From assembly GCF_001423245.1 (NCBI RefSeq), contig NZ_LMOH01000023.1:1645-65644 (forward strand): a DNA stretch of 64,000 bases, in the 5' to 3' direction. The position numbers and the translations under genes were made by a program. Below, piece after piece: positions 47,413 to 59,319 of this stretch (within the stretch, counting starts at the first letter, position 1; the number at the start of each line of letters is the position of its first letter). The notes under the pieces were generated by a model. That model was not told the origin of the DNA. It saw only the letters and a program-made list of their open reading frames with translations, and did no database searches. The stretch comes from Aureimonas sp. Leaf324. GTDB taxonomy: Bacteria > Pseudomonadota > Alphaproteobacteria > Rhizobiales > Rhizobiaceae.

Positions 47413-48465
47413 TCAGGCGGCGCGAAGCGTCGCGGCCGGCTTGAGGTTCGCCTCGGTGACGGTGCGGTCGTCCTCGAGCGAGCGGGCCGCCTGAAGGCCG
47501 CCCTTCTGGAGTTCACCGTGATAGGCGCGCACGGCCTCGTCCGGCGTCAGCGCACCGTCGGCGACCTGACGCATCATCGACACCATCGCCAGCGGATCTT
47601 CGGCGAGATTGATCTTGCGGCCGAACAGGGCGACGCGCGCGCCGTACTTCTCGGCCTGCGCGACGAGTTCGAACGTATCGCGCGCGGTGCCGGCACCGCC
47701 GCCGAGCACGCCGACGACCAGCGTCGAATCGAAGCTCGCGAGTTCCTCGAGCGCCTTCGGACCGTTGTAGACGATCTTCAGGAACTCCGGTCGGTCGGCC
47801 TTCGAGACGCCCGCCAGAGACCGCAGGATGCAGTCGTTCATGTATTCGCCGAGCGCGTCGCGATCGAGGTCGAGCGGCACGTTCGGGTTGAAGACCTCAT
47901 AGAAGTACTTGAACTCGTTGGCCGCGGCCTCGCGCCGGAACTCGGCGAACGCCTCCAGCGACTCGATGTCGGCGGCGAGATCGTTGTTGAAGGTCACCGA
48001 GTAGAGCCCAAGATCGGTGCCCTTCACCGGCGCGCCCGGCTGCGGGAACGCCGAACCGTAGCGCACGCGCGACAGTTCGGCCGTGCGGAACGGCAGCGAC
48101 GGGGCCTGCGTGTAGCGCTGGTGGCGCATGCCGCCCCAGCAATCAGTCGTCTCGTTCGCGCGGATCGCGGGCTTCACGGCACTGCCGTCGAACGCCCCCC
48201 GCTCATGCAGTTCGTCGAGGTTGGAGACCGACACCAGCATGATGTCGACGACATCCTGGCGGACGATCGCCTCGATCGCATCGAGAAATTCCTGGCGCGT
48301 GCGGCGGCGACCCTGCGTTCCGTCCGGATTGCGCAGGAAGCCGGTGCCGCCGACACCCGATCCCATGTCGCTGTCCTTGGCGTCGGCGATGATGAAATCC
48401 GACCGGCTGTAGCGCCCGGCGCGAATGTTCTGAAGCTTCTGGTCCAACCGGAGCACGGCGGTCAT
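47413..48465 (-). CDS. Class I aldolase-like protein, DhnA/LsrF type
   Basis: 350 residues from the ATG at 48465; an ATG at 48546 adds 27 residues and cannot be ruled out. It resembles TIM-barrel class I aldolases of the DhnA/FbaB/LsrF group. Lys230 in FLKIVYNG is at the Schiff-base position, and VLGGGAGTARDTF (about 253-265) with ALFGRKI (about 279) looks like the phosphate-binding end, so a phosphorylated substrate is likely. The first strand reads DFIIADAKDSDMG. It diverges from the ADP-dependent kinase-like gene; together they could phosphorylate and split a sugar. The exact reaction is not known. Confidence 0.7.
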   Translation of the reverse strand: MTAVLRLDQKLQNIRAGRYSRSDFIIADAKDSDMGSGVGGTGFLRNPDGTQGRRRTRQEFLDAIEAIVRQDVVDIMLVSVSNLDELHERGAFDGSAVKPAIRANETTDCWGGMRHQRYTQAPSLPFRTAELSRVRYGSAFPQPGAPVKGTDLGLYSVTFNNDLAADIESLEAFAEFRREAAANEFKYFYEVFNPNVPLDLDRDALGEYMNDCILRSLAGVSKADRPEFLKIVYNGPKALEELASFDSTLVVGVLGGGAGTARDTFELVAQAEKYGARVALFGRKINLAEDPLAMVSMMRQVADGALTPDEAVRAYHGELQKGGLQAARSLEDDRTVTEANLKPAATLRAA

Positions 48466-48772
48466 CCTCGGATCGTTGATGGAATGCGCGCCCGGTTCCC
48501 GGACCGAGCGAGCGACACAGCCAGGTATAACTCCAAACTGTTTCATCGGAAATCTTTTTCTTCCAAACGCTCCCTGCCATAGACGACGTCGGCACTCACG
48601 GTCTCGGCATTAGCATACCCGGCCTCTCCGCGACGTCTTCAATCCCGATCGGTACGTCGCGCGCTCGCAACCGCAGCACGGGATGCTGCACGACAATGAC
48701 GTTTTATGGTTGACCCAGCCTCGGTTCCGCATGTTCCTGACGCGAATTGACGTGATCTCGCGGAGGAAGCTC
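48466..48772. promoter_or_regulatory. Divergent promoter region aldolase / ADP-dependent kinase
   Basis: 307 bases. Towards the aldolase gene, TTGAAG and TATGCT 19 bases apart (minus strand, about 48642 to 48612) form a loose promoter. Towards the kinase gene, TTGACC at 48709 is a possible -35 without a good -10. No palindrome like the one at 52765 was found. The 81 bases next to 48465 could be coding if the aldolase starts at 48546. Confidence 0.35.
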
Positions 48773-50026
48773 ATGGACGACGGCGAAGCGCACTGGCACG
48801 CGGCCTATGACGGTCTGGTGCGCCGCCTGCCGGCCATGGCGCGCAGCGCCCCGCTGACGCTCTGCGGCATGAGCGCCTGCGTCGATGCCCGGATCGATCT
48901 GTCTGATGCGGCGGCCCTCTGGACCGCCGACGATCCGGGAGCCGCCGCCTTCGCTTCCATGCTGAAGGATCGCGTTGCGCGCGGCGTCGGCGGCGAGGTG
49001 CGCGTCGAGTGGACCGCCGGACCGGCATGGCTCGCCGACCACGTGCCGGCCCGCTACGCTCTCGGCGGCGTCGGCCCGCAGGCCGGATGGGTGCTGACGA
49101 CGCTCGGCGCCCCCGCGATCGTCAACCTGTCGGACCGCAGCGCCCACATGCTCGCGCGCCTGCCCGGGAACCTGCTGCTGGCCGAGGGCGAGCGCACGGT
49201 GCGGGCGCGGTCCGTCCAGCCGCGCGGCGCCCGGCGGCCCGACATCTACATCTTCGAATACACGGCGGGGCGCGCCGTCGGCGACTGCGTGCCCAACCGC
49301 TCGTCGCGCATCATCGTGCGCTTCGGCGATCCGGGCCTTGAGAAGGACGCGGCCTTCGAGGGCCTGACGCCGCATCTGGCACCGGAGGCCGGAACCGGCC
49401 TCGTCGCGGGCTTCAACTGCGTGCCACCGGCCGAACTCGACGACGAACTCGCCCGCGTGTTTTCGCTGACACGGCGCTGGCTCGACGCGGGTCTCTCCAC
49501 CGTGCATCTCGAGATGAGCACCTTTGAGGACGCCGCCTTGCGCGATCGCGTGTTGGACGGCGCGCGGGGTGCCGTGACCTCGCTCGGCATGAGCCACTCG
49601 GAAATGCGCGACCTCGCGCCTGGCGTCGCCGACGCCGACCTGGCTGAGACCATGCGGGCGCTCGGTGAGCGCCTGGACCTGGACCGTGTCTGCGTCCACG
49701 CCGATCATTGGGCGCTGACCGTCACGCGGCGCGACGCCGATGTCGAGCGCGAGGCGCTGATGGCCGGTTGCCTCGTCGCGAGCACGCGGTCGATGGCCGG
49801 ACAGCCCGCCGTGCCCATGAGCGTCGCGGACGGCGCCACGTTCCATCGCCCACCCGTCGACGACGGGGCGCTCGGCGACGGGTGGACCTTGGTCGCCGCG
49901 CCGAGCCCCTATCATGCCGCGCCCGCGACGACCCTCGGGCTCGGCGACACGTTCACCGCCGGTTGCCTCCTCGTTCTCGGCTCGGCCGGCAGCGCCGGGC
50001 GCCAGCGGATCCGCCAACGCGCCTGA
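48773..50026 (+). CDS. ADP-dependent glucokinase/phosphofructokinase family protein
   Basis: 417 residues from the ATG at 48773, with GCGGAGGA 7 bases upstream; open frame and weaker starts extend upstream. The layout matches the ADP-dependent sugar kinase family (ribokinase-like fold): YALGGVGPQAGWVLTTLG at the sugar-binding end, HLEMSTFED (His245, Glu247), SLGMSHSEM (usual NxxE replaced by SHSE, 272-277), VCVHADHW (His309), and TLGLGDTFTAG with catalytic Asp392. These kinases phosphorylate glucose or fructose-6-phosphate with ADP and are known mainly from archaea and animals. It leads an operon with the SDR. Substrate and donor are unproven. Confidence 0.82.
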   Translation: MDDGEAHWHAAYDGLVRRLPAMARSAPLTLCGMSACVDARIDLSDAAALWTADDPGAAAFASMLKDRVARGVGGEVRVEWTAGPAWLADHVPARYALGGVGPQAGWVLTTLGAPAIVNLSDRSAHMLARLPGNLLLAEGERTVRARSVQPRGARRPDIYIFEYTAGRAVGDCVPNRSSRIIVRFGDPGLEKDAAFEGLTPHLAPEAGTGLVAGFNCVPPAELDDELARVFSLTRRWLDAGLSTVHLEMSTFEDAALRDRVLDGARGAVTSLGMSHSEMRDLAPGVADADLAETMRALGERLDLDRVCVHADHWALTVTRRDADVEREALMAGCLVASTRSMAGQPAVPMSVADGATFHRPPVDDGALGDGWTLVAAPSPYHAAPATTLGLGDTFTAGCLLVLGSAGSAGRQRIRQRA

Positions 50027-50049
50027 CCGCGCGACATCAGGACAGTACC

Positions 50050-50823
50050 ATGTACCGCGAAAAATCCGACCTCTCCGGCCGCGCCGCCTTCATCACCGGC
50101 GGCGGGCGCGGCATCGGCCTGTGCACCGCCGAGGCGCTTCTGGAACACGGCGCCCGCGTCGTCATCTCCGACCGGGACCCGGCGGTGCTGGAGGCGGGGC
50201 GCGCGGACCTCGCGGAGAAGGGCTGGGAGGTCGATGTCGTCACGCTCGACGTGACCGATTCCAAGGCCGTCGCCCGCGCCGCGGCAGAGGCCAACGAACG
50301 GCACGGCGGCATCGACATCCTCATCGCCAACGCCGGCATCGCCTGGCCGGACACGCCGGGCGAAAGCATGACCGACGAGGTCTGGCACAAGGTCGTCGAT
50401 GTCGACCTCAACGGCTGCTACTGGTCGTGCCGCGAGTTCGGCCGCGCCATGCTGGAGCGCGGGCGGGGTTCGATCGTCACGGTCGGCTCGATGTCGGGCC
50501 TCATCTCCAACAAGCCGCAGCGGCAGGTGCATTATAACGCCGCGAAGGCCGGCGTGCACCATATGACGCGCTCGCTCGCGGGCGAATGGGCGCCGCGCGG
50601 CGTTCGCGTCAATTCGGTGGCGCCGACCTATGTCGATACCGCCATGTCGCGCGGCGGCTTCACCGACGACGCGCTGATGCCGACCTGGATGGCGTCGACC
50701 CCGATGAACCGCCCGGCCCGGGCCGACGAGATCGCCTCCGCGATCCTGTTCCTCGCCACGGACGCGTCGAGCGCGATGACGGGATCGATCGTGACGGTGG
50801 ATTGCGGCTATACCATTTGGTAA
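50050..50823 (+). CDS. SDR dehydrogenase, galactitol/polyol dehydrogenase-like
   Basis: 257 residues from the ATG at 50050, 23 bases after the kinase. SDR features: TGGGRGIG cofactor site, ISDRD after strand 2 (Asp suggests NAD), NAG, and Ser/Tyr/Lys in VGSMSG and YNAAK. The segment after NKPQ and the ending VDCGYTIW are close to galactitol dehydrogenase of Rhodobacter sphaeroides, which oxidises galactitol to L-tagatose. So a polyol-to-ketose step is likely; the actual polyol is not certain. Confidence 0.85.
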   Translation: MYREKSDLSGRAAFITGGGRGIGLCTAEALLEHGARVVISDRDPAVLEAGRADLAEKGWEVDVVTLDVTDSKAVARAAAEANERHGGIDILIANAGIAWPDTPGESMTDEVWHKVVDVDLNGCYWSCREFGRAMLERGRGSIVTVGSMSGLISNKPQRQVHYNAAKAGVHHMTRSLAGEWAPRGVRVNSVAPTYVDTAMSRGGFTDDALMPTWMASTPMNRPARADEIASAILFLATDASSAMTGSIVTVDCGYTIW

Positions 50824-50887: not shown

Positions 50888-51697
50888 ATGGACGCCCCCA
50901 CCAAACGCGTCGAGATCATTCCCGCCAAGCGGCGCGCGATGATCCTCGACTACCTGAAGGTCAACGGGACGGCCTCGATCGGCGAACTCACCGAGGCGAT
51001 CGGTGGCTCGCAGTCCACGATCCGCCGCGACCTCGAACAGCTGACCGAGGGCGGCTATCTCGAACGCACGCATGGCGGGGCGCTGCTCGTCCCGCCCTTG
51101 CGCGCTACGTTTGAGCGCGAGCCGGCGCTGAACGCCCACTACCAGCACCGGCAGAAGGCGGCGATCGGCCAGGAGGCGGCGACGCGCCTCAAGGGCGGCG
51201 AGAGCGTGATCTTCGATTCCAGCTCCACCGTGATCGAGGTGGTGCGGGCGACGGCCCTCCGCCGCTTGCCCCTCACCGTCGTCACCAACAACATCGAGAT
51301 CGCGCGGATCGGCTCCAGCGTGCCGGAATGGCGGGTGATCGTTACCGGCGGCACGCTGCGGCCCGGCGGAGACCTTCTGACCGGCCAGCCGGGCGAGCCG
51401 TTCTTCGAGACGATCCATGCCGACGTCTGCTTTACCGGTGCCTATGCCGTGACCGGGCAGATCCTCACCGACGCCTCGATGGAGATCGCCTCGATCAAGC
51501 GGGCGATGATCCGCTCGGCGCGGCGCACGATCCTGCTCGTCGACAGCACCAAGTTCCAGGCGCCCGCCTTCTGCACCTTCGCCCAGCTGTCGCAGATCTC
51601 GGAGGTCATCACCGACCAAGGCGTCGACGCCGACATCGCCTCCAGCCTGCGCGCCAGCGGCACGGAGCTCACCGTCGTCCCCCTGACGGGCGACTGA
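50888..51697 (+). CDS. DeoR/GlpR-family transcriptional regulator
   Basis: 269 residues. N-terminal DeoR helix-turn-helix (about 15-70) with ASIGELTEAIGGSQSTIRRD and LERTHGGALL, then the sugar-phosphate sensing domain with SVIFDSSSTVIEV, VTNN, GGTLRPGG and LLVDSTKF. Such repressors respond to phosphorylated sugars. It follows the SDR by 64 bases and probably regulates the kinase-SDR operon; its operator was not identified. Confidence 0.92.
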   Translation: MDAPTKRVEIIPAKRRAMILDYLKVNGTASIGELTEAIGGSQSTIRRDLEQLTEGGYLERTHGGALLVPPLRATFEREPALNAHYQHRQKAAIGQEAATRLKGGESVIFDSSSTVIEVVRATALRRLPLTVVTNNIEIARIGSSVPEWRVIVTGGTLRPGGDLLTGQPGEPFFETIHADVCFTGAYAVTGQILTDASMEIASIKRAMIRSARRTILLVDSTKFQAPAFCTFAQLSQISEVITDQGVDADIASSLRASGTELTVVPLTGD

Positions 51698-51700
51698 CCG

Positions 51701-52693
51701 TCAGGCCGACGCGCGCACCGTCAGCCGCGCCGGCAGAAGTGTGCGCGTCGCCACCTCGGAGCCGTCGCGCAGGGCATCCAGCAGCATCCGGGTCGCGAGT
51801 TCGGCGTGGGCCTCTACGTCCTGCGCCATCGTGGTCAGCGCCGGGCAGGCGTAGCGGCTGAGCGGATGGTCGTCGTGCCCGGCGATCCGCAGCGCACCGG
51901 GTGCTCGGCCGATCGCCACGCCGCGCGCGAAGGCTGAGGCCAGGGCTCCCAGCGCCAGCCGGTCGTTGGCGCACAGGAGGCTGCGAAAGGGCGGCGGCCC
52001 TGCCTCGAGGATTCGCTCCATCGCCTCGAAACCGAGGCGCTCGAAGTCCCAGCCGTTGCCGGGCGGCGTGATCCGTTGCGGCACGAGGCCGAGTTCGGCC
52101 ATGCGCGAGAGATAGCGGGTCCGGCGCTCGCGGGCGCTCGCGTTCACGTCCGGCATGTCGAGATAGGCGGGCGCCTCGCCGCCCCGCGCCAGATAATCCA
52201 CCAGCGCGGCGACGCTCTGCCCGTTGTCGTTGCCGACGAAGCCGCCCACCGATCCCGCCGCGCTGTCGAGGAAGACGAGAGGCATCCGCTCGCCGAGCGC
52301 CCGCGCCGGCTCTGTCAGCGCGTCCGCTCCGCAGGACGCGATCAAGGCGCCTGAGACCCGCTGGTCGAGAAGCGTTTGGAGTGCCAGCGCCTCGCCCTCC
52401 GCCTCGCCGCGCGACGACAGGACGAGCGGCCAGAAGCCCGCCGATCGGCAGTGCTCTTCCAGAAGCGCGACGAGCGCCGCGTAGAACGGGTCGGCGACGG
52501 TCGGCACCACGATCCCGATAGTGCGGGCTCGCCGACGGTTCAGATTGCGCGCGAAGGGGTTCGGCCGGTAGTCCGACTGGGCCAGCGCCGCCTCGATGCG
52601 CCGGCGCGTCGCGGGACGCACGCTCGCCGGGTCGTCGAAGAACTTCGCCAGCGTCGGCCGCGACAGGCCGCAGGCTTTCGCGAAGTCCTCCAT
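51701..52693 (-). CDS. LacI-family transcriptional regulator
   Basis: 330 residues from the ATG at 52693. LacI helix-turn-helix at the N-terminus (FAKACGLSRPTLAKFFD, RRRIEAALAQSDYRPNP with the hinge helix) and a periplasmic-binding-protein-like sensor domain with TIGIVVPTVADPFYAAL, GNDNGQSV and LCANDRLALGAL. Its gene converges on the DeoR gene with only 3 bases between the stops and diverges from the tagatose kinase-like operon over a palindromic operator, so it very likely represses that operon and itself. Confidence 0.93.
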   Translation of the reverse strand: MEDFAKACGLSRPTLAKFFDDPASVRPATRRRIEAALAQSDYRPNPFARNLNRRRARTIGIVVPTVADPFYAALVALLEEHCRSAGFWPLVLSSRGEAEGEALALQTLLDQRVSGALIASCGADALTEPARALGERMPLVFLDSAAGSVGGFVGNDNGQSVAALVDYLARGGEAPAYLDMPDVNASARERRTRYLSRMAELGLVPQRITPPGNGWDFERLGFEAMERILEAGPPPFRSLLCANDRLALGALASAFARGVAIGRAPGALRIAGHDDHPLSRYACPALTTMAQDVEAHAELATRMLLDALRDGSEVATRTLLPARLTVRASA

Positions 52694-52786: not shown

Positions 52787-52874
52787 TCGATTGACCGCCC
52801 TTCCCGCCGAGCGCAGCTTGATGATGGGCGCGATGGGAGCACTGATCCCGCGTCCGCCTTGGGGAGGGCTTGGC

Positions 52875-53822
52875 ATGAAGACGGTGGTGACCGCCGGGGA
52901 AATCGTCGTCGAGATCATGGCGACGCGGATCGGGCAGACGTTTCTGGAGCCCGGCCCGCTCATCGGCCCCTTCCCGTCCGGCGCGCCTGCGATTTTCATC
53001 GATCAGGTCGGCCGGCTCGGCCAGCCCTGCGGCATGATCTCCTCGCTCGGCGCCGACGATTTCGGCACTCTCAATCTTGAACGCCTGGCAGCCAGTGGCG
53101 TCGACGTCTCCGCCGTCGCGGTGCATCCCGGCGCCGCCACCGGCAGCGCCTTCGTGCGCTACGCGGCGGACGGGAGCCGCGCCTTCGTGTTCAACATCAA
53201 GGACAGCGCCTGCGGCCTGATGGCGATGACCGGGGCGGCCGAGGCGCTGGTCGGCCGCGCCGACCACATCCACGTCATGGGCTCCTCGCTGTTCTCGGAC
53301 GGCGCGATCACCGTCACCAAGGCAGCCGTCGAGTGCATCAAGGCGCGGGGCGGCACGGTCTCCTTCGATCCCAACATCCGGCCCGAGCTTCTGGTCGGCG
53401 CCATGCGCGAGGCCCTCGAATGGGTGGCCGAGCGGTGCGACGTCTTCCTGCCGAGCGGCACCGAGCTCTTCCTTTTCACTTCGGCACAGGACGAGGAGGG
53501 CGCGGTCGCGGAACTCCTGGCCGCCGGCCGGTCCGCCGTCGTCCTCAAGAAGGGCGGCGACGGGGCCGTCCTCTACGACGCACGCGGGCGCACCGCGGTG
53601 CCGGCCTTCCGCGTCGAGGAGGTCGATCCGACGGGCGCCGGCGACTGCTTCGGCGCCGGATTCGTCTGCGCCTGGCTGCGCAGCGAGAGCCCGGCGGAGG
53701 CCCTTCGCCTCGCCAACGCCTGCGGCGCCCTCGCCGTCACACGCAAGGGGCCGATGGAAGGCACGCGCTTCCGCTCCGAGATCGACGCGTTCATCGCCTC
53801 GCAGACGGGAGTGGCGGCATGA
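52875..53822 (+). CDS. PfkB-family sugar kinase, tagatose kinase-like
   Basis: 315 residues from the ATG at 52875, with GGGGAGGG about 7 bases upstream. The N-terminus TAGEIVVEIMATRIG, GPFPSGAPAIFIDQVGRLG and VEEVDPTGAGDCFGAGF (catalytic Asp257) are the ribokinase/PfkB pattern, close to tagatose kinases of Agrobacterium. It would phosphorylate D-tagatose (or fructose) with ATP. The stop overlaps the gatZ start (ATGA); kinase plus GatZ is the pair shown to take D-tagatose to fructose-6-phosphate in Agrobacterium galactitol catabolism. Substrate inferred from this context. Confidence 0.85.
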   Translation: MKTVVTAGEIVVEIMATRIGQTFLEPGPLIGPFPSGAPAIFIDQVGRLGQPCGMISSLGADDFGTLNLERLAASGVDVSAVAVHPGAATGSAFVRYAADGSRAFVFNIKDSACGLMAMTGAAEALVGRADHIHVMGSSLFSDGAITVTKAAVECIKARGGTVSFDPNIRPELLVGAMREALEWVAERCDVFLPSGTELFLFTSAQDEEGAVAELLAAGRSAVVLKKGGDGAVLYDARGRTAVPAFRVEEVDPTGAGDCFGAGFVCAWLRSESPAEALRLANACGALAVTRKGPMEGTRFRSEIDAFIASQTGVAA

Positions 53823-55099
53823 GCGCCATCGACCGGCTGCGCGCCCTGCCGCGACGGTTTCAAGCGGGCGAACACGCCGGCGTCACCTCGGTCTGTTCCG
53901 CCCACCCGCTGGTGATCGAAGCGGCGCTGCGACATGGTCTCGCCCGTGACCGCGACGTCCTGATCGAGGCGACCTGCAATCAGGTGAACCAGGACGGCGG
54001 CTACACCGGCATGACGCCGGCCGACTTCCGCCGCTTCGTGGAACGGATCGCCGCGATGGTCGGCTTTCCGCTCGAGCGACTGGTGCTCGGCGGCGACCAT
54101 CTCGGCCCCAATCCCTGGAAGCATTTGGATCCGCATGAAGCGATGGCCAAGGCCGAGACGATGATCGAAGGGTTCGCCGCCGCAGGCTTCGCCAAGCTCC
54201 ATCTCGACGCCTCGATGGGATGCGCTGGCGAGCCGGCCGCCCTCGACGACGAGACGGTCGCCGAACGCGCCGCCCGGCTCGCGGCACGGGCGGAGGGCGC
54301 CGTCGCCAGAGGCGGCCTCGTCCCGCCGGTCTATGTGATCGGCACCGAGGTTCCTGTTCCCGGCGGGGCGACCGAAGCGCTCGACCACCTCGCCGTCACC
54401 GGCCGGGAGGCCGTCCGCCATACGGTCGACGTCCACGCGAAGGCCTTTGCCGCGCTCGCGCTCGACGACGCCTTCGCCCGTGTCATCGCGGTGGTCGTGC
54501 AGCCGGGGGTCGAGTTCGGCCACGAGGACATCGTGGTCTACCGGCCGGAAGCAGCCGCCGACCTCAAGGGCTTCCTCGCGGAGGAGCCGCGTCTCGTGTT
54601 CGAGGCCCATTCCACCGACTACCAGCCGGACGACGCGTTGCGCCGACTGGTGGGAGACGGCTTCTCGATCCTGAAAGTGGGCCCGTGGCTTACCTTCGCG
54701 CTGCGCGAGACGCTCTACGGCCTTTCGCACATCGCCGACATCCTGGCACCCGCGCCGGATGAGCCGTCGCTGCGCGATGCGATGGAGGCCCTGATGCTGG
54801 AGAAGCCCGACAACTGGCGGAAATACTGCCACGGCTCGGAGGCGGAGGTGGCGGTCCAGCGCCATTTCTCGCTCAGCGACCGCATCCGCTACTATTGGCC
54901 GGACGCCGCCGCGCAAGGGGCTGTCGATCGCCTGATGACGCGGCTCGACGGTTGCGCGATCCCCCTTCCGCTCGTCGGCCAACATCTCGGACGCCTGGCC
55001 GAGAGCGTTGCGGCGGGACGGGTCACGCCTGAACCTCGGGCCCTTCTCCTCACCGGCATCGAGGCGGTGCTCGACCGCTACGACCGCGCCACGCACTGA
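53819..55099 (+). CDS. gatZ: GatZ/KbaZ family protein, likely D-tagatose-6-phosphate 4-epimerase
   Basis: 426 residues overlapping the kinase by 4 bases. Family hallmarks: HAGVTSVCSAHPLVIEA, TCNQVNQDGGYTGMTP, LGGDHLGPNPWK, LHLDASMGCAG, VIGTEVPVPGGA and FEAHSTDYQ. In E. coli GatZ is called a chaperone-like aldolase subunit, but the Agrobacterium homologue was shown to epimerise D-tagatose-6-phosphate to D-fructose-6-phosphate. No GatY/KbaY aldolase partner is adjacent, which fits the epimerase role. Confidence 0.93.
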   Translation: MSAIDRLRALPRRFQAGEHAGVTSVCSAHPLVIEAALRHGLARDRDVLIEATCNQVNQDGGYTGMTPADFRRFVERIAAMVGFPLERLVLGGDHLGPNPWKHLDPHEAMAKAETMIEGFAAAGFAKLHLDASMGCAGEPAALDDETVAERAARLAARAEGAVARGGLVPPVYVIGTEVPVPGGATEALDHLAVTGREAVRHTVDVHAKAFAALALDDAFARVIAVVVQPGVEFGHEDIVVYRPEAAADLKGFLAEEPRLVFEAHSTDYQPDDALRRLVGDGFSILKVGPWLTFALRETLYGLSHIADILAPAPDEPSLRDAMEALMLEKPDNWRKYCHGSEAEVAVQRHFSLSDRIRYYWPDAAAQGAVDRLMTRLDGCAIPLPLVGQHLGRLAESVAAGRVTPEPRALLLTGIEAVLDRYDRATH

Positions 55100-55116: not shown

Positions 55117-56262
55117 ATGGCCCGCATGGGGATCGGCATCATCGGCTGCGGCAACATCGCCGCGACCTACCTGCGCAACGCGCGGCTCTTCGGCGATGTG
55201 GCGCTTGTCGCCTGCGCCGACCGTGTGCCCGAGATGGCGGAGCGCCGCGCGGCCGATTACGGCATGCGGGCGATGAGCGTCGAGGCGCTCCTCGCCGAGC
55301 CCGATGTCCAGCTCGTGCTGAACCTCACCATTCCCGCCGCCCATCGCGAGGTGACGGAGGCGGCGCTCGGGGCCGGCAAGCACGTCTTCACCGAAAAGCC
55401 GCTCGGCGTGACGCTGCGCGAGGGCCGCGCGCTGGTCGAAGAGGCCGAGCGGCGGGGCCTCTCGCTCGGCTCGGCGCCCGACACGTTCCTCGGCGCGGCG
55501 GGCCGCCGGGCGCGCGCGCTGATCGACGCCGGTGCCATCGGCAAGCCGGTGATCGGCACCGCCTTCATGATGGGGCGCGGCATGGAGCACTGGCATCCCA
55601 ATCCGCAGTTCTACTACCAGCCGGGCGGCGGCCCGGTGCTCGACATGGGCCCCTACTACCTAACGATGCTGGTCAATCTCCTTGGGCCCGTGGCGCGCGT
55701 CTCCGCCGTCGCGCGCACGGGTCAGGAGATGCGCGAGATCACCGCCGAAGGGCCCTTCCACGGCACGCGCTTTCCCGTCGCCACGCCGACGAGCCTCCTG
55801 TCGCTCCTGGAATTCCGGAGCGGCGCGGCGGTCACCTTCGGCGCCTCGTGGGACGTCTTCCGCCACTCCAACCATCCGATCGAACTGCACGGCACGGAGG
55901 GTTCGATCCGCCTGCCCGACCCCGATACGTTCGGGGGCGACGTGTCGCTCTCGGCGCGCGGCGAACCGTGGCGGGAGCACCCGAGCGAGCCGGAGCCCTT
56001 CGGCGCAATCAACTGGCCGTTCGACGAACCGCGCATCGCCAACTACCGCATGCTGGGCGTCGCCGATCTCGTGCGTTCCATCACGGAGGGACGCCCCGCG
56101 CGCGCCTCCGGTCGCCTCGCCCTCCACGTCCTCGAGGTCATGGAGGCGATCCTCACCGCGGCCGACACCGGCCAGCCGATCGGCATCGAAGGGAGGCTCG
56201 AGCGGCCCGCGGCGCTCGGCGACGCCGAGGCCACAGCCCTCCTCTCGGGCGACCCGGCATGA
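55117..56262 (+). CDS. Gfo/Idh/MocA-family oxidoreductase
   Basis: 381 residues, 17 bases after gatZ. N-terminal Rossmann fold with GIIGCGNIAATYL, then the family motif VFTEKPLGVTL (EKP, about residue 94). The C-terminal half has GGGPVLDMGPYYLTML, the usual substrate-binding segment (DMGPY). It oxidises or reduces a sugar or sugar derivative with NAD(P). The stop overlaps the hydrolase start (ATGA). Confidence 0.92.
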   Translation: MARMGIGIIGCGNIAATYLRNARLFGDVALVACADRVPEMAERRAADYGMRAMSVEALLAEPDVQLVLNLTIPAAHREVTEAALGAGKHVFTEKPLGVTLREGRALVEEAERRGLSLGSAPDTFLGAAGRRARALIDAGAIGKPVIGTAFMMGRGMEHWHPNPQFYYQPGGGPVLDMGPYYLTMLVNLLGPVARVSAVARTGQEMREITAEGPFHGTRFPVATPTSLLSLLEFRSGAAVTFGASWDVFRHSNHPIELHGTEGSIRLPDPDTFGGDVSLSARGEPWREHPSEPEPFGAINWPFDEPRIANYRMLGVADLVRSITEGRPARASGRLALHVLEVMEAILTAADTGQPIGIEGRLERPAALGDAEATALLSGDPA

Positions 56263-57221
56263 CGCTCGATCCGCAGGCCGCCGAGGTTCTGGCGCTCGGA
56301 GCCCGGTCCCCGTCTCCCCCGTTCGAGGATGGCACGCCCGAGGCCGCGCGACGCGCCTACCGCAAGTCCTACCTCGCGCTGCGGGGCGATCTCGAACCCG
56401 TTGCCGAGACCCGCGACGCCGCGATCGAGGGCGCGGGTGGCCCGATCCCGGTCTGCATCCACCGCGGCATCGGCGCGCCGGCGGAGGGAGCACCGGCGCT
56501 TCTCTACCTCCACGGCGGCGGCTGGGTGATCGGCGACCTCGACTCCCACGACGACATCTGCCGCTGGTTCGCCAATGCCGCCCGCTGCGTCGTCGTCTGC
56601 CCGGATTACCGGCTGGCGCCCGAACACCGCTTTCCCGCCGCGATCGAGGATGCCGGTGCCGTCCTGTCCCACATGGTCGCGGAGGCCCCGGCGCTCGGCA
56701 TCAATGCCGCACATATCGCCGTTGCCGGGGACAGCGCCGGCGGCAACCTCGCGGCGGTGCTGGCGATCCAGTCACGAAACGGCACCGTGCCGCCGCTGGA
56801 GGCGCAACTCCTTCTCTATCCCAACACGGACGCCGGCCAGACGGCCGACAGCTATCGTCGGTTCGCCGAAGGCTACGGCCTGACACGCCGGACGATGCGC
56901 TGGTTCCGCGACCAGTATGTACGCAGCGAAGCAGACATCGCCGACTGGCGCGTCTCGCCCCTGCGCGCCGATCGCCTCGACGGCGCGCCCCCGGCCTTCG
57001 TGGCGCTTGCGGGACAGGACATCCTCCACGACGAGGGGGCGGCCTATGCCGAGCGGCTGCGCAGGGCGGGCGTGCCGCTCGCCGTGCGCCGCCTCAGCGA
57101 CCAGATCCACGGCTTCGCCTCGGCTGGCCGCTACATCGACGCCGCGCGCCGGACGGTGCTGGAAGCGGCGGATGCCTGGGCCGATTTTCGCACGAATGTG
57201 AGGGAGCGACGCGCGGATTGA
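56259..57221 (+). CDS. Alpha/beta hydrolase, HSL-type esterase/lactonase
   Basis: 320 residues. Oxyanion motif LYLHGGGWVIGD (HGGGW), nucleophile GDSAGGNLA (about residue 155), Asp in AGQDILHDEG and His in DQIHGFASA: the hormone-sensitive lipase family. In a sugar operon it may hydrolyse an acetyl ester or lactone, for instance a product of the neighbouring oxidoreductase; this is inference. Last gene of the LacI-controlled operon. Confidence 0.92.
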   Translation: MTLDPQAAEVLALGARSPSPPFEDGTPEAARRAYRKSYLALRGDLEPVAETRDAAIEGAGGPIPVCIHRGIGAPAEGAPALLYLHGGGWVIGDLDSHDDICRWFANAARCVVVCPDYRLAPEHRFPAAIEDAGAVLSHMVAEAPALGINAAHIAVAGDSAGGNLAAVLAIQSRNGTVPPLEAQLLLYPNTDAGQTADSYRRFAEGYGLTRRTMRWFRDQYVRSEADIADWRVSPLRADRLDGAPPAFVALAGQDILHDEGAAYAERLRRAGVPLAVRRLSDQIHGFASAGRYIDAARRTVLEAADAWADFRTNVRERRAD

Positions 57222-57639: not shown

Positions 57640-59319
57640 TTAATCAGCCGCCATTTCGTGGCGGATGGCCGCGAGCCAGACGACGACGGCCTCCGCGCCG
57701 GGGTCCGGCACGCCCACTGCCCGGTCGCCGAGATAGCTCGACCGGCCGCGCCGCGGCGCCATGGCCGCGGTCGCCGCCGCGCCGGCCCGGGCCGCCTCTA
57801 CCGCGGCCGCCAGTCCGCCGCGGGAGAGCGCGTCGGCCGCGGGCAGCAGCGCATCGAGCATCGTCCGGTCGCCGGGCTTCGCGTCGCCGAGCGTCGCGAC
57901 CGCATCGGTGCCCTCGCGAAAGGCCTCGGCCCAATCCGTCGACGTCGGCGCGGCAATGCCGTCGAGGGCGCGCGCGGCGCGCAACAAGCCCGCCGCGTAG
58001 AGCGCACCGGACGTGCCGCCGACCGAGCGGCGAAGGCTGCCGGACAGGGCGCGCAGGATGGAGGCGGCGTCCGCGCCGGTCCAGCCGGTCGCCTCGGCCA
58101 TCGCGACCTCGGCGCCGCGCGCCAGGTTGAGGCCGAGGTCGCCGTCGCCGACCGTCTGATCGAGGGCCGTCAGCCGCCCCTCTTCGGCGATCAGCCGCTC
58201 CGCCGCGCGCGTGAGGATCGCGACCGTCCGAGCGCCGTCGCCCGGCCGCAGGTCTTGCCCCTCGCGCCGGGGCGAGGCGACCACAATCGGTCCCTCCCGA
58301 CCCAGCGGTCCCGCCCCGCGTCCCGGCCATGCGGGCGCCGCGGCCGGCGCATCGAGGAGCCGCAGCGTGTCGGGGTCGGCCCGCAGGAGCGAGACGGAAC
58401 AGCCCGCCATGTCGAGCGCGGTCAGGAACGTCCCGGTCCACAGCCGCTCGATGACGAGACCGTGGGACCGCGCCGCCGCGACGGCATCGCGCGCGACGAT
58501 CTGCATTTCCATCACCGGCGTCGCGCCGAGATTGTTGACGAGAAGCGCGACCGGCGTGTCGCGGCCGAGCGAGAGTTCGGCGACGATCCGCTCCACCAGG
58601 GTCGCGGTGAGCTCGCGCGAAGGGCGCAGCAGTTCGCGCCGCACGCCGGCTTCCCCGTGAATGCCGAGCCCGAGCTCGACCTCGCGCTCGCCGAGTTCGA
58701 AGCCCGGCTTGCCGGCGGCCGGCACGGTGCAGGCCGACAGGGCGACGCCCATGCTGCCGAGCCCGGCGATCGCCTTCTCGGCCGCCGCCGTCACCTCGGC
58801 AAGCGTCGCGCCCTCGGCGGCCCGCGCGCCGGCAACCTTGTGGACGAGCACGGTGCCCGCGATGCCGCGCCGCCCGGCGGTCTCCGTGCTGGCCGCGAGC
58901 GCCACGTCGTCGGCGACGACGACCATTTCGACCGGAATGCCCTCGCCGCGCGCGATCTCCGCCGCAAGGCCGAAGTTGAGCCGGTCGCCCGTGTAGTTCT
59001 TGACGATCAGGAGGACACCCGCCGCCCCGCCCACCGCGCGGATCGCGGCCAGCACCGCGTCGGTCGAGGGCGAGGTGAAGACGTCGCCGCACACGGCCGC
59101 GGTGAGAAGTCCCTCGCCGACATAGCCGGCATGGGCCGGCTCGTGTCCGGACCCGCCGCCCGAGACGAGCGCGACATGCCCACAATCGCGAAAGGCGGCG
59201 AGGTCGGCGCGGACGAGCACGCGCTCGCCTTCGAGGAGAGCAAGACCGGGATGGGCGAGGCAGAGCCCCTCCAGCATCTCGTCGACCACCGCCAGTGGCT
59301 CGTTGATCAGCTTCTTCAT
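57640..59319 (-). CDS. Fused dihydroxyacetone kinase (DhaK-DhaL)
   Basis: 559 residues from the ATG at 59319, with GGGAGA 8 bases upstream. DhaK part (about 1-330): VSGGGSGHEPAHAGYVG, KNYTGD, and the substrate-binding His221 in GLGIHGEAG. After a linker, the DhaL ATP-binding part (about 355-555) has DQTVGDGDLGLNLARGA and VGGTSGALYAAG. Single-chain enzymes use ATP, not PTS phosphate. Substrates in the family include dihydroxyacetone and erythrulose. It ends the sugar region and could capture triose or tetrulose products. Confidence 0.94.
   Translation of the reverse strand: MKKLINEPLAVVDEMLEGLCLAHPGLALLEGERVLVRADLAAFRDCGHVALVSGGGSGHEPAHAGYVGEGLLTAAVCGDVFTSPSTDAVLAAIRAVGGAAGVLLIVKNYTGDRLNFGLAAEIARGEGIPVEMVVVADDVALAASTETAGRRGIAGTVLVHKVAGARAAEGATLAEVTAAAEKAIAGLGSMGVALSACTVPAAGKPGFELGEREVELGLGIHGEAGVRRELLRPSRELTATLVERIVAELSLGRDTPVALLVNNLGATPVMEMQIVARDAVAAARSHGLVIERLWTGTFLTALDMAGCSVSLLRADPDTLRLLDAPAAAPAWPGRGAGPLGREGPIVVASPRREGQDLRPGDGARTVAILTRAAERLIAEEGRLTALDQTVGDGDLGLNLARGAEVAMAEATGWTGADAASILRALSGSLRRSVGGTSGALYAAGLLRAARALDGIAAPTSTDWAEAFREGTDAVATLGDAKPGDRTMLDALLPAADALSRGGLAAAVEAARAGAAATAAMAPRRGRSSYLGDRAVGVPDPGAEAVVVWLAAIRHEMAAD

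What the first reader, a model, noticed from the sequence alone, without database searches (positions are those of the whole stretch)
47413..50823. ADP-dependent kinase-like gene diverging from a class I aldolase: possible unknown sugar pathway in an alphaproteobacterium
Seen: the protein at 48773-50026 has the full set of positions of the ADP-dependent glucokinase/phosphofructokinase family (HLE, GMSHSE, GLGDTFTAG with Asp392), and its divergent partner has a Schiff-base-like Lys230 and a phosphate-binding GGGAGT. Known: this kinase family is studied in archaea and animals; archaea pair ADP-dependent phosphofructokinase with DhnA-type class I aldolase in a modified glycolysis. Inferred: here the same two families sit head to head with a polyol dehydrogenase and a DeoR repressor, so they may form a bacterial route polyol to ketose to phosphate to aldol cleavage.
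Basis: partly seen in the sequence, partly recalled or inferred. Interest (0 to 1): 0.75.

Follow-up and report, generated by a model that had tools for sequence, protein, structure and literature searches.

The report
Bacterial ADP-kinase-family and aldolase sugar operon
A sugar kinase of a family studied mainly in archaea and animals sits in soil and plant-leaf bacteria beside an enzyme that splits phosphorylated sugars, and the pairing recurs in several bacterial phyla even where the splitting enzyme has been swapped for another kind, which points to an uncharacterised way of eating some sugar or sugar alcohol.

Summary
The kinase (48773-50026) belongs to the ADP-dependent sugar kinase family: PF04587 50.6 bits, cut-off 27; the 17 best PDB entries by fold are all of that family. 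Its divergent neighbour (47413-48465) is a class I aldolase-like barrel with invariant Lys230 on a strand that I count as the sixth, nearest to DhnA-type structures but a member of no named family by sequence.

The pairing goes far beyond the window. In 77 related loci a gene of a tested aldolase type lies within 7 kb of the kinase in 73; the other four are cut, masked or hold an aldolase fragment. The partner is the window-type aldolase (48), a LacD type (22) or a class II aldolase (3). One verrucomicrobial locus reads as a single kinase-LacD frame. In 246 actinomycete genomes all 9 PF04587 genes found (7 of 7 without the centre genome) sit beside an aldolase and a divergent DeoR gene.

Best reading: import, conversion to a ketose, phosphorylation of the free ketose, aldol cleavage. 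The kinase does not look like a phosphofructokinase: 4 of 6 phosphate ligands of fructose-6-phosphate are replaced. Substrate, phosphorylated carbon and phosphoryl donor are not shown. My ten paper searches found no description of it.

The parts
48773..50026 (+). KIN: ADP-dependent sugar kinase family (PF04587), 417 aa
   Evidence: PF04587 50.6 bits, cut-off 27; PDB profile hits to ADP-dependent GK/PFK, best E 5.6e-26; model pLDDT 96; (17 best entries all ADP-dependent kinases, Z 39.7 to 30.2; next entry Z 22.6)
47413..48465 (-). ALD: class I aldolase-like TIM barrel, 350 aa; Lys230 in strand 228-232, GGGAGT 255-260, GR 282-283
   Evidence: start; model pLDDT 82, pTM 0.83; 2qjg ADH synthase Z 22.1, LsrF 21.3, archaeal FBA 20.4; K230, G255-257, R283 29 of 29
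50050..50823 (+). SDR, polyol dehydrogenase-like, 23 bp behind KIN
   Evidence: (3awd putative polyol dehydrogenase E 1.1e-79; galactitol dehydrogenase 2wdz E 6.1e-57)
50888..51697 (+). DeoR-family repressor, likely regulator of the cluster
   Evidence: a DeoR-like gene in 70 of 77 loci
48673..48714 (.). operator/promoter-like block between the divergent genes: inverted repeat 48673-48689 and AATGACGTTTTATGGTTGAC 48695-48714
   Evidence: conserved in most of 6 relatives aligned; only place in the window; the second pattern was found in 0 of 100 shuffles, the first with 2 or more matches in 6 of 100
48526..48554 (.). second conserved block near the ALD start (TATAA...TTTCAT.GGAAATC), possible ALD promoter or operator
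   Evidence: position
51701..52693 (-). LacI-family regulator (neighbour, membership uncertain)
52791..53822 (+). PfkB kinase, tagatose kinase-like; true start probably at 52821 or later (neighbour, membership uncertain)
   Evidence: NF049991 411.6 bits, cut-off 420
53819..55099 (+). GatZ/KbaZ-like protein (neighbour, membership uncertain)
   Evidence: TIGR02810 610.1 bits, cut-off 568.8
55117..56262 (+). Gfo/Idh/MocA oxidoreductase (neighbour; homologues in 12 of 77 loci)
56259..57221 (+). alpha/beta hydrolase (neighbour, membership uncertain)
57640..59319 (-). Dak1-Dak2 dihydroxyacetone kinase (neighbour; bears on the rival reading)
   Evidence: its cluster holds only the window and L071-L073 among the 78 loci clustered

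Best explanation
It is the core of a catabolic route for a sugar or sugar alcohol. The compound is imported (ABC transporter genes lie in the same locus in most relatives; none was recognised between 46.3 and 57.2 kb of the window). In the window group a short-chain dehydrogenase oxidises a polyol to a ketose. The ADP-kinase-family protein phosphorylates the free ketose, most likely on carbon 1, and the aldolase forms a Schiff base through Lys230 and cleaves the product to dihydroxyacetone phosphate and an aldehyde. DeoR controls both divergent genes. Shown here: kinase family, aldolase fold with the lysine on a barrel strand, and conserved pairing with class I and class II aldolases. Inferred: the polyol and ketose substrates, carbon 1, the Schiff base, dihydroxyacetone phosphate as product, ADP as donor, DeoR control.
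For: Kinase. Free sugar rather than sugar phosphate: of six residues that contact the phosphate of fructose-6-phosphate in PDB 6XIO (PMC7948494, section read), N32, N34, K179 and N181 are replaced (position 34 is Ser in 25 of 40, 36 is Cys in 34 of 40, 157 varies, 158 is His in 21 and Ile in 16); E90 is kept (E75, 40 of 40) and Q244 is Asn215 in 36 of 40. Aldolase. Pairing: aldolase within 7 kb in 73 of 77 loci (48 ALD, 22 LacD-type, 3 class II). The four others: L072 ends at a contig edge, and its contig holds the first 66 residues of ALD there (L010); L115 ends 2 bp behind KIN, its other side shows none; L138 has a run of N behind KIN; L143 carries a DhnA-type fragment (PRK07226 68.5 bits). 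Fusion: in L132 KIN and LacD form one open frame of 749 codons with both Pfam domains (80.2 and 65.4 bits). Order sample: 23 of 25 places plus the window. Actinomycete sample: 9 of 9 PF04587 genes beside an aldolase, 8 class II and 1 LacD; 7 of 7 without the centre genome, which I had picked. Aldolase type changes at least 4 times on the kinase tree. Genomes of the order: ALD in 19 of 21 with KIN, 36 of 376 without, Fisher p 3.9e-16 (from; 12 genomes with only weak partial ALD hits counted as lacking it). In 20 chosen ALD regions without KIN, a PfkB kinase lies within 133 bp of ALD in 11 and within 1 kb in 12. SDR.
Against: No biochemical result exists here. Class II aldolases of the GatY/FBA family are known (recalled) mostly for bisphosphates, so a second kinase could be needed; L145 and L147 do carry two PF04587 genes in tandem (L145 by Pfam, L147 by similarity). 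The 77 loci are the best-scoring of 310 relatives, fetched with a kinase profile, and hold near copies, so they are not independent events. Two of 25 places in the order sample (L047, second gene of L059) have no aldolase within 7 kb. The kinase is patchy even in its genus: 8 of 21 genomes including the window's. ALD occurs in 36 genomes of the order without KIN. The profile comparison of ALD with the LacD set found no similarity. The SDR step: SDRa-like hits in only 31 of 77 loci. The L132 fusion is one metagenome bin, and a Met stands where LacD would start, so a lost stop or a base error is possible. One kinase, that of L085, falls under the PF04587 cut-off (19.9 bits; 17 of 18 genomes tested over it).
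Confidence: 0.62

Rival explanations
1. The kinase phosphorylates the far end of the ketose (like glucokinase on carbon 6) and the aldolase releases free dihydroxyacetone plus an aldose phosphate; the dihydroxyacetone kinase at 57640-59319 finishes the job.
For: Dak1-Dak2 kinase 7.6 kb away, conserved in the window and three Aureimonas loci; the best structural matches of the kinase are glucokinases.
Against: Its cluster holds no other of the 78 loci clustered. ALD keeps GGG and GR turns behind the strands at 250-255 and 278-281, where related aldolases hold the phosphate next to the carbonyl (recalled).
Confidence: 0.17
2. Archaeal-type glycolysis in a bacterium: an ADP-phosphofructokinase acts on fructose-6-phosphate or tagatose-6-phosphate (made by the tagatose kinase at 52791-53822), and ALD is a bisphosphate aldolase.
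For: Tagatose kinase-like gene and GatZ/KbaZ next door; the LacD partner tested carries the name tagatose 1,6-diphosphate aldolase.
Against: 4 of 6 phosphate ligands of the PFK site are replaced. A TagK-like hit is in only 5 and KbaZ in 4 of 77 loci; other kinases (FGGY) are near in some, so a first kinase is not excluded everywhere.
Confidence: 0.1
3. A route for a seven-carbon ketose (for example sedoheptulose) or another substrate whose cleavage gives a four-carbon aldehyde that is oxidised to a tetronate.
For: In L142 (Microbacterium) the order is KIN, LacD, aldehyde dehydrogenase (PF00171), D-threonate kinase-like gene (123.7 bits, cut-off 450), PdxA (TIGR00557 364.4, cut-off 290).
Against: Only 1 of 77 loci shows it (the PdxA near L016 belongs with other genes); the substrate probably differs between branches.
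Confidence: 0.06
4. The pairing is a by-product of sugar-gene clustering, and the kinase is a regulator or acts in an unrelated step.
For: Sugar genes cluster anyway; some kinase copies look interrupted.
Against: Catalytic residues invariant in 40 of 40; adjacency kept while the aldolase type changes; one kinase-LacD fusion frame; three canonical archaeal-type PF04587 loci show no hit to these aldolases nearby (a small control, one locus ends about 230 bases behind the kinase).
Confidence: 0.05

Closest known systems
ADP-dependent glucokinase/phosphofructokinase family (PF04587; e.g. PDB 4b8s, 1ua4, 6xio)
   Same: Fold, GXGD, HXE, D/NXXE glutamate, conserved Arg at the beta-phosphate and His at the ADP ribose
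   Different: 16-19% identity in structure alignments, shorter, sugar pocket changed (Gln116 to Thr in 37 of 40, Asn32/Asn34 to Ser/Cys mostly), far from the three canonical rows on the tree
Sulfo-EMP pathway (sulfofructose kinase and YihT aldolase)
   Same: Works alike: kinase then LacD/DeoC-type class I aldolase; the LacD partner of L017 hits 8tnf (E 3.7e-40) and YihT structures
   Different: Kinase family there is PF00294 (passage in PMC12421959), here PF04587; sulfosugar genes were not searched for
DhnA-type class I aldolases (ADH synthase, LsrF, archaeal FBA)
   Same: Best structural matches of ALD (Z 22.1 to 20.1; the FBA 4moz of Slackia also at 20.8)
   Different: No family cut-off reached by sequence; about 80 residues longer than ADH synthase, with a long stretch between strands 98-102 and 152-158
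LacD, tagatose-1,6-bisphosphate aldolase (PRK12858 subfamily)
   Same: Stands beside the same kinase family in place of ALD in 22 of 77 loci; the member tested reaches the PRK12858 cut-off (228.6, cut-off 184)
   Different: Not in the window's cluster; no detectable profile similarity to ALD

Membership tests
ADP-dependent sugar kinase family (PF04587) | Profile score over the curated cut-off | tested here: met
   50.6 bits, cut-off 27
ADP-dependent sugar kinase family (PF04587) | Fold of the family, distinct from other ribokinase-like kinases | tested here: met
   17 family entries Z 39.7-30.2, next entry Z 22.6
ADP-dependent sugar kinase family (PF04587) | GXGD aspartate, HXE glutamate, D/NXXE glutamate, Arg at beta-phosphate | tested here: met
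   D392, E247, E277, R179 each 40 of 40; roles from PMC7948494; the D/N of D/NXXE is Ser in 29 of 40
ADP-dependent sugar kinase family (PF04587) | Uses ADP as phosphoryl donor | not testable with these tools
   needs assay
ADP-phosphofructokinase | Residues holding the phosphate of fructose-6-phosphate (N32, N34, E90, N181, K179, Q244 of 6XIO) | tested here: not met
   only E90 kept, Q244 mostly Asn; four replaced
ADP-phosphofructokinase / ADP-glucokinase equivalogs (NCBIfam) | Equivalog cut-off | tested here: not met
   best 40.2 bits against 387
DhnA-type class I aldolase | Sequence family cut-off (PRK07226, PRK08227) | tested here: not met
   20.2 against 241 and 16.7 against 297 bits; 0 Pfam families
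DhnA-type class I aldolase | TIM barrel nearest to DhnA-type structures | tested here: inconclusive
   DhnA types rank first (Z 22.1-20.1) but 8tnf, LacD, YihT and other FBA follow at 19.6 and below
Schiff-base (class I) aldolase | Invariant lysine on strand 6 of the barrel | tested here: met
   K230 in strand 228-232, the sixth by my count; 29 of 29; covalent chemistry not tested
Sulfo-EMP pathway | PfkB-type sulfofructose kinase | tested here: not met
   the kinase hits PF04587 only
Polyol dehydrogenase (SDR) | Activity on a polyol | not testable with these tools
   closest solved structures 3awd and 2wdz

The most novel reading that the evidence does not exclude
Bacteria of several phyla (Pseudomonadota and Actinomycetota from named isolates; Verrucomicrobiota, Chloroflexota and Dormibacterota from metagenome bins) run an undescribed sugar-splitting pathway driven by a truly ADP-dependent ketose kinase. 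The aldolase has been exchanged at least four times for other kinds, and once joined to the kinase in one frame. PF04587 in bacteria would then mark mainly this pathway rather than a modified glycolysis.
Probability: 0.42. Interest if true: 0.78.

Novelty: new variant of a known kind. Interest (0 to 1): 0.64.

Why it matters
ADP-dependent kinases are usually discussed with archaeal glycolysis (recalled). A bacterial clade tied to sugar import and aldol cleavage would give the family a second, catabolic role and let its nucleotide preference be tested in easily grown soil and leaf bacteria. The repeated exchange of the aldolase beside one kinase family is a natural experiment on replacement of one enzyme by another, and the binding proteins give a direct way to find the sugar. 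It also warns that a name such as ADP-dependent glucokinase would mislead here.

Tried and rejected
Archaeal-type glycolysis was considered and set low because the fructose-6-phosphate site is mostly not kept. The glutamate that was removed in the ancMT E72A structure corresponds to E75; it is Ala in Pyrococcus ADP-PFK but Glu in the ancestral PFK of 6XIO, so I did not use it as proof. An inositol-like route was considered because GFO, the IolE-like gene and the PfkB partner of ALD have inositol enzymes as best hits, but all are far below the cut-offs. A sulfosugar route was considered after 8tnf appeared; PMC12421959 (passages read) demonstrates another pathway in that organism. A heptulose route rests on one locus.

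A profile comparison of ALD with the LacD set gave nothing (both profiles are shallow). Sequence searches of ALD against the PDB gave no convincing match. A k-mer search for an operator shared across genera gave motifs within groups; none was in all 16 regions. PF04587 itself is rare: 4 of 289 genomes of the class, the window's and three canonical ones.

Literature: ten searches in the open-licence library found no paper on this gene pairing; most subscription papers are not held, so this is not proof. PMC7948494: one section read and passages. Passages only: PMC3688580, PMC12421959, PMC12193009, PMC7304191 (it reports no PF04587 evidence in Candidate Phyla Radiation genomes). Other listed papers: search listing only.
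Full report
What is in the window. The kinase gene (KIN, 48773-50026, +) and the aldolase-like gene (ALD, 47413-48465, -) stand head to head, 307 bp apart. KIN is followed by an SDR (50050-50823) and a DeoR gene (50888-51697). ALD probably starts at 48465 rather than 48546: the two nearest relatives align from the first residue of the longer ORF, five others only from residue 30 to 33. Farther right come a LacI regulator, a tagatose kinase-like PfkB protein, GatZ/KbaZ, a Gfo/Idh/MocA oxidoreductase, an alpha/beta hydrolase and a dihydroxyacetone kinase. The nearest rows of the kinase tree are Aureimonas records (highest identity 95%).

The kinase. It passes the PF04587 cut-off. A profile of 40 relatives finds ADP-dependent glucokinases and phosphofructokinases in the PDB at E down to 5.6e-26. 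A model (pLDDT 96, pTM 0.94) matches 17 entries of this family at Z 39.7 to 30.2; the next entry, a guanosine kinase, is at Z 22.6 (a second look at Foldseek's best 1000 chains). With residue roles from PMC7948494 (section read) and the alignments, the catalytic Asp, the HXE and D/NXXE glutamates, the Arg at the beta-phosphate and the His at the ADP ribose are invariant in 40 of 40. This fits use of ADP but does not prove it. The residues that contact the 6-phosphate of fructose-6-phosphate are mostly lost: Asn32, Asn34, Lys179 and Asn181 are replaced; Glu90 is kept and Gln244 is Asn in 36 of 40. The reading is: a kinase for a free sugar.

The aldolase. It has no Pfam family and only weak NCBIfam hits to DhnA-type enzymes; the second copy in the same genome (L178) hits the same families more clearly, 40.0 bits, still far below the cut-off. 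The model (pLDDT 82, pTM 0.83) is an alpha/beta barrel; Lys230 lies in strand 228-232, the sixth of eight by my count, and the GGG and GR motifs follow the next two strands. Best folds are ADH synthase, LsrF and archaeal FBA (Z 22.1 to 20.1, with the FBA 4moz at 20.8 among them), then sulfohexulose-1-phosphate aldolase 19.6 and LacD 19.2. Of 30 positions that I listed for their conservation, 29 are identical in all 29 sequences.

Conservation of the pairing. Three samples were used. (a) Relatives and order. The kinase is in 9 of 61 relatives, 8 of 21 in the genus with the window's own, and in 21 of 397 genomes of the order. Of 25 kinase places outside the window genome, 23 have ALD or a LacD-type aldolase within 7 kb; the window makes it 24 of 26; the misses are L047 and the second gene of L059. 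Genomes with the kinase have ALD in 19 of 21, the others in 36 of 376 (p 3.9e-16; 12 genomes with only weak partial ALD hits were counted as lacking it; genomes are not independent). (b) A scan of named genomes found 310 relatives; the best gave 77 distinct loci. Within 7 kb an aldolase is found in 73: ALD 48, LacD-type 22, class II 3. Of the four others, L072 ends at a contig edge, and the same contig read as L010 holds the first 66 residues of ALD at its end; L115 ends 2 bp behind the kinase match, with no aldolase on its other side; L138 has a run of N behind the kinase; L143 holds a fragment of a DhnA-type aldolase. A DeoR-like gene is in 70 and some ABC transporter component in 67 of 77 loci, anywhere in up to 21 kb. 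(c) In 246 genomes of the class of Nonomuraea (G731), PF04587 rings in 8 genomes with 9 genes. All 9 lie next to an aldolase (8 class II, 1 LacD) with a divergent DeoR gene, and 8 have a binding protein and two permeases in line. Two of the 9 are in the centre genome, which I had picked because it has the kinase; without it the count is 7 of 7. The eight with class II aldolase are of a second subfamily (KINB; the L202 protein is 24% identical to KIN). As a small control, three canonical archaeal-type PF04587 loci in low-GC alphaproteobacterial genomes have no hit to these aldolases nearby (one of them ends about 230 bases behind the kinase).

Fusion. In L132, a verrucomicrobial metagenome bin, kinase and LacD lie in one open frame of 749 codons without a stop; Pfam finds PF04587 (80.2 bits) and DeoC/LacD (65.4 bits) in it. 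A Met stands where LacD would start, so a lost stop or a base error cannot be excluded; in the other LacD loci the gene caller gave two genes or missed one.

Partner swaps. On a quick tree of 71 kinases with three canonical rows as outgroup the aldolase type changes at least 4 times (branch tests alone, long branches flagged, loci with both types labelled ALD, unlabelled rows left out). L052 and L053 carry both pairs in one region. Conversely, I took 20 ALD regions without KIN: a PfkB kinase lies within 133 bp of ALD in 11 and at 954 bp in one more; five others hold an FGGY kinase 0.2 to 6.4 kb away; three hold neither. So a sugar kinase and an aldolase tend to go together, whichever families supply them. 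This is the strongest argument that they are consecutive steps.

Substrate. The loci differ in their front ends: SDRa-like in 31 of 77, GFO in 12, IolE-like in 6, ManA-like cupin in 4; the ManA-like gene also in 4 of the 9 actinomycete places (L213, L217, L218, L220; L220 is the same place as L140). The ManA-like protein is a weak match to mannose-6-phosphate isomerase (39.6 bits, cut-off 116). These could be ways to make a ketose from a polyol or an aldose. The window's SDR is nearest to a putative polyol dehydrogenase and to galactitol dehydrogenase. I cannot name the sugar, and it probably differs between branches. DHAP as common product is inferred from the known chemistry of these aldolase families (recalled).

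Regulation. The intergenic region has two blocks conserved among most of six relatives, 48526-48554 and 48673-48714, the second with an inverted repeat. They are candidates for operators and promoters; nothing shows binding.

Verdict. The finding is larger than the window: a bacterial branch of the ADP-kinase family bound to aldolases of at least three kinds. Known parts in an arrangement that I did not find described: a new variant of a known kind.

Noticed in passing
L132:9986-12232: Kinase and LacD aldolase in one open frame of 749 codons in a verrucomicrobial bin: a possible fusion of the two steps.
   Followed up: partly
L202:8361-10413, L201, L203, L213-L219: A second bacterial PF04587 subfamily in actinomycetes sits in a compact operon: divergent DeoR, binding protein, two permeases, class II aldolase, kinase (some with a ManA-like gene).
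   Followed up: partly
L178:8078-12368 (window genome, contig C1): The window's genome has a second ALD copy paired with a PfkB kinase and ribose-type transporter genes.
   Followed up: partly
window 57640-59319: A fused Dak1-Dak2 dihydroxyacetone kinase lies near the cluster in the window and three Aureimonas loci.
   Followed up: partly
L142:9953-16055: Microbacterium: kinase, LacD, aldehyde dehydrogenase, threonate kinase-like gene and PdxA in a row, a hint at a four-carbon aldehyde product.
   Followed up: partly
L145:7024-11206 and L147: Two class II aldolase genes followed by two different PF04587 kinases in tandem; a two-kinase, bisphosphate version is possible.
   Followed up: partly
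L066 (G107), L094, L109, L106, L137: Some kinase or aldolase copies look interrupted (one inner stop in G107; genes missed or split by the gene caller); left as they are.
   Followed up: no
L016 and L086, L090, L097, L117 among others: A ribose-type ABC transporter with a ribulokinase-like FGGY kinase and a ROK protein recurs beside the cluster (FGGY in 12 of 77 loci).
   Followed up: partly
L043-L045 (regions L068-L070): Three low-GC alphaproteobacterial genomes carry canonical archaeal-type ADP-kinases (235-262 bits to PF04587) without a hit to the tested aldolases nearby.
   Followed up: partly
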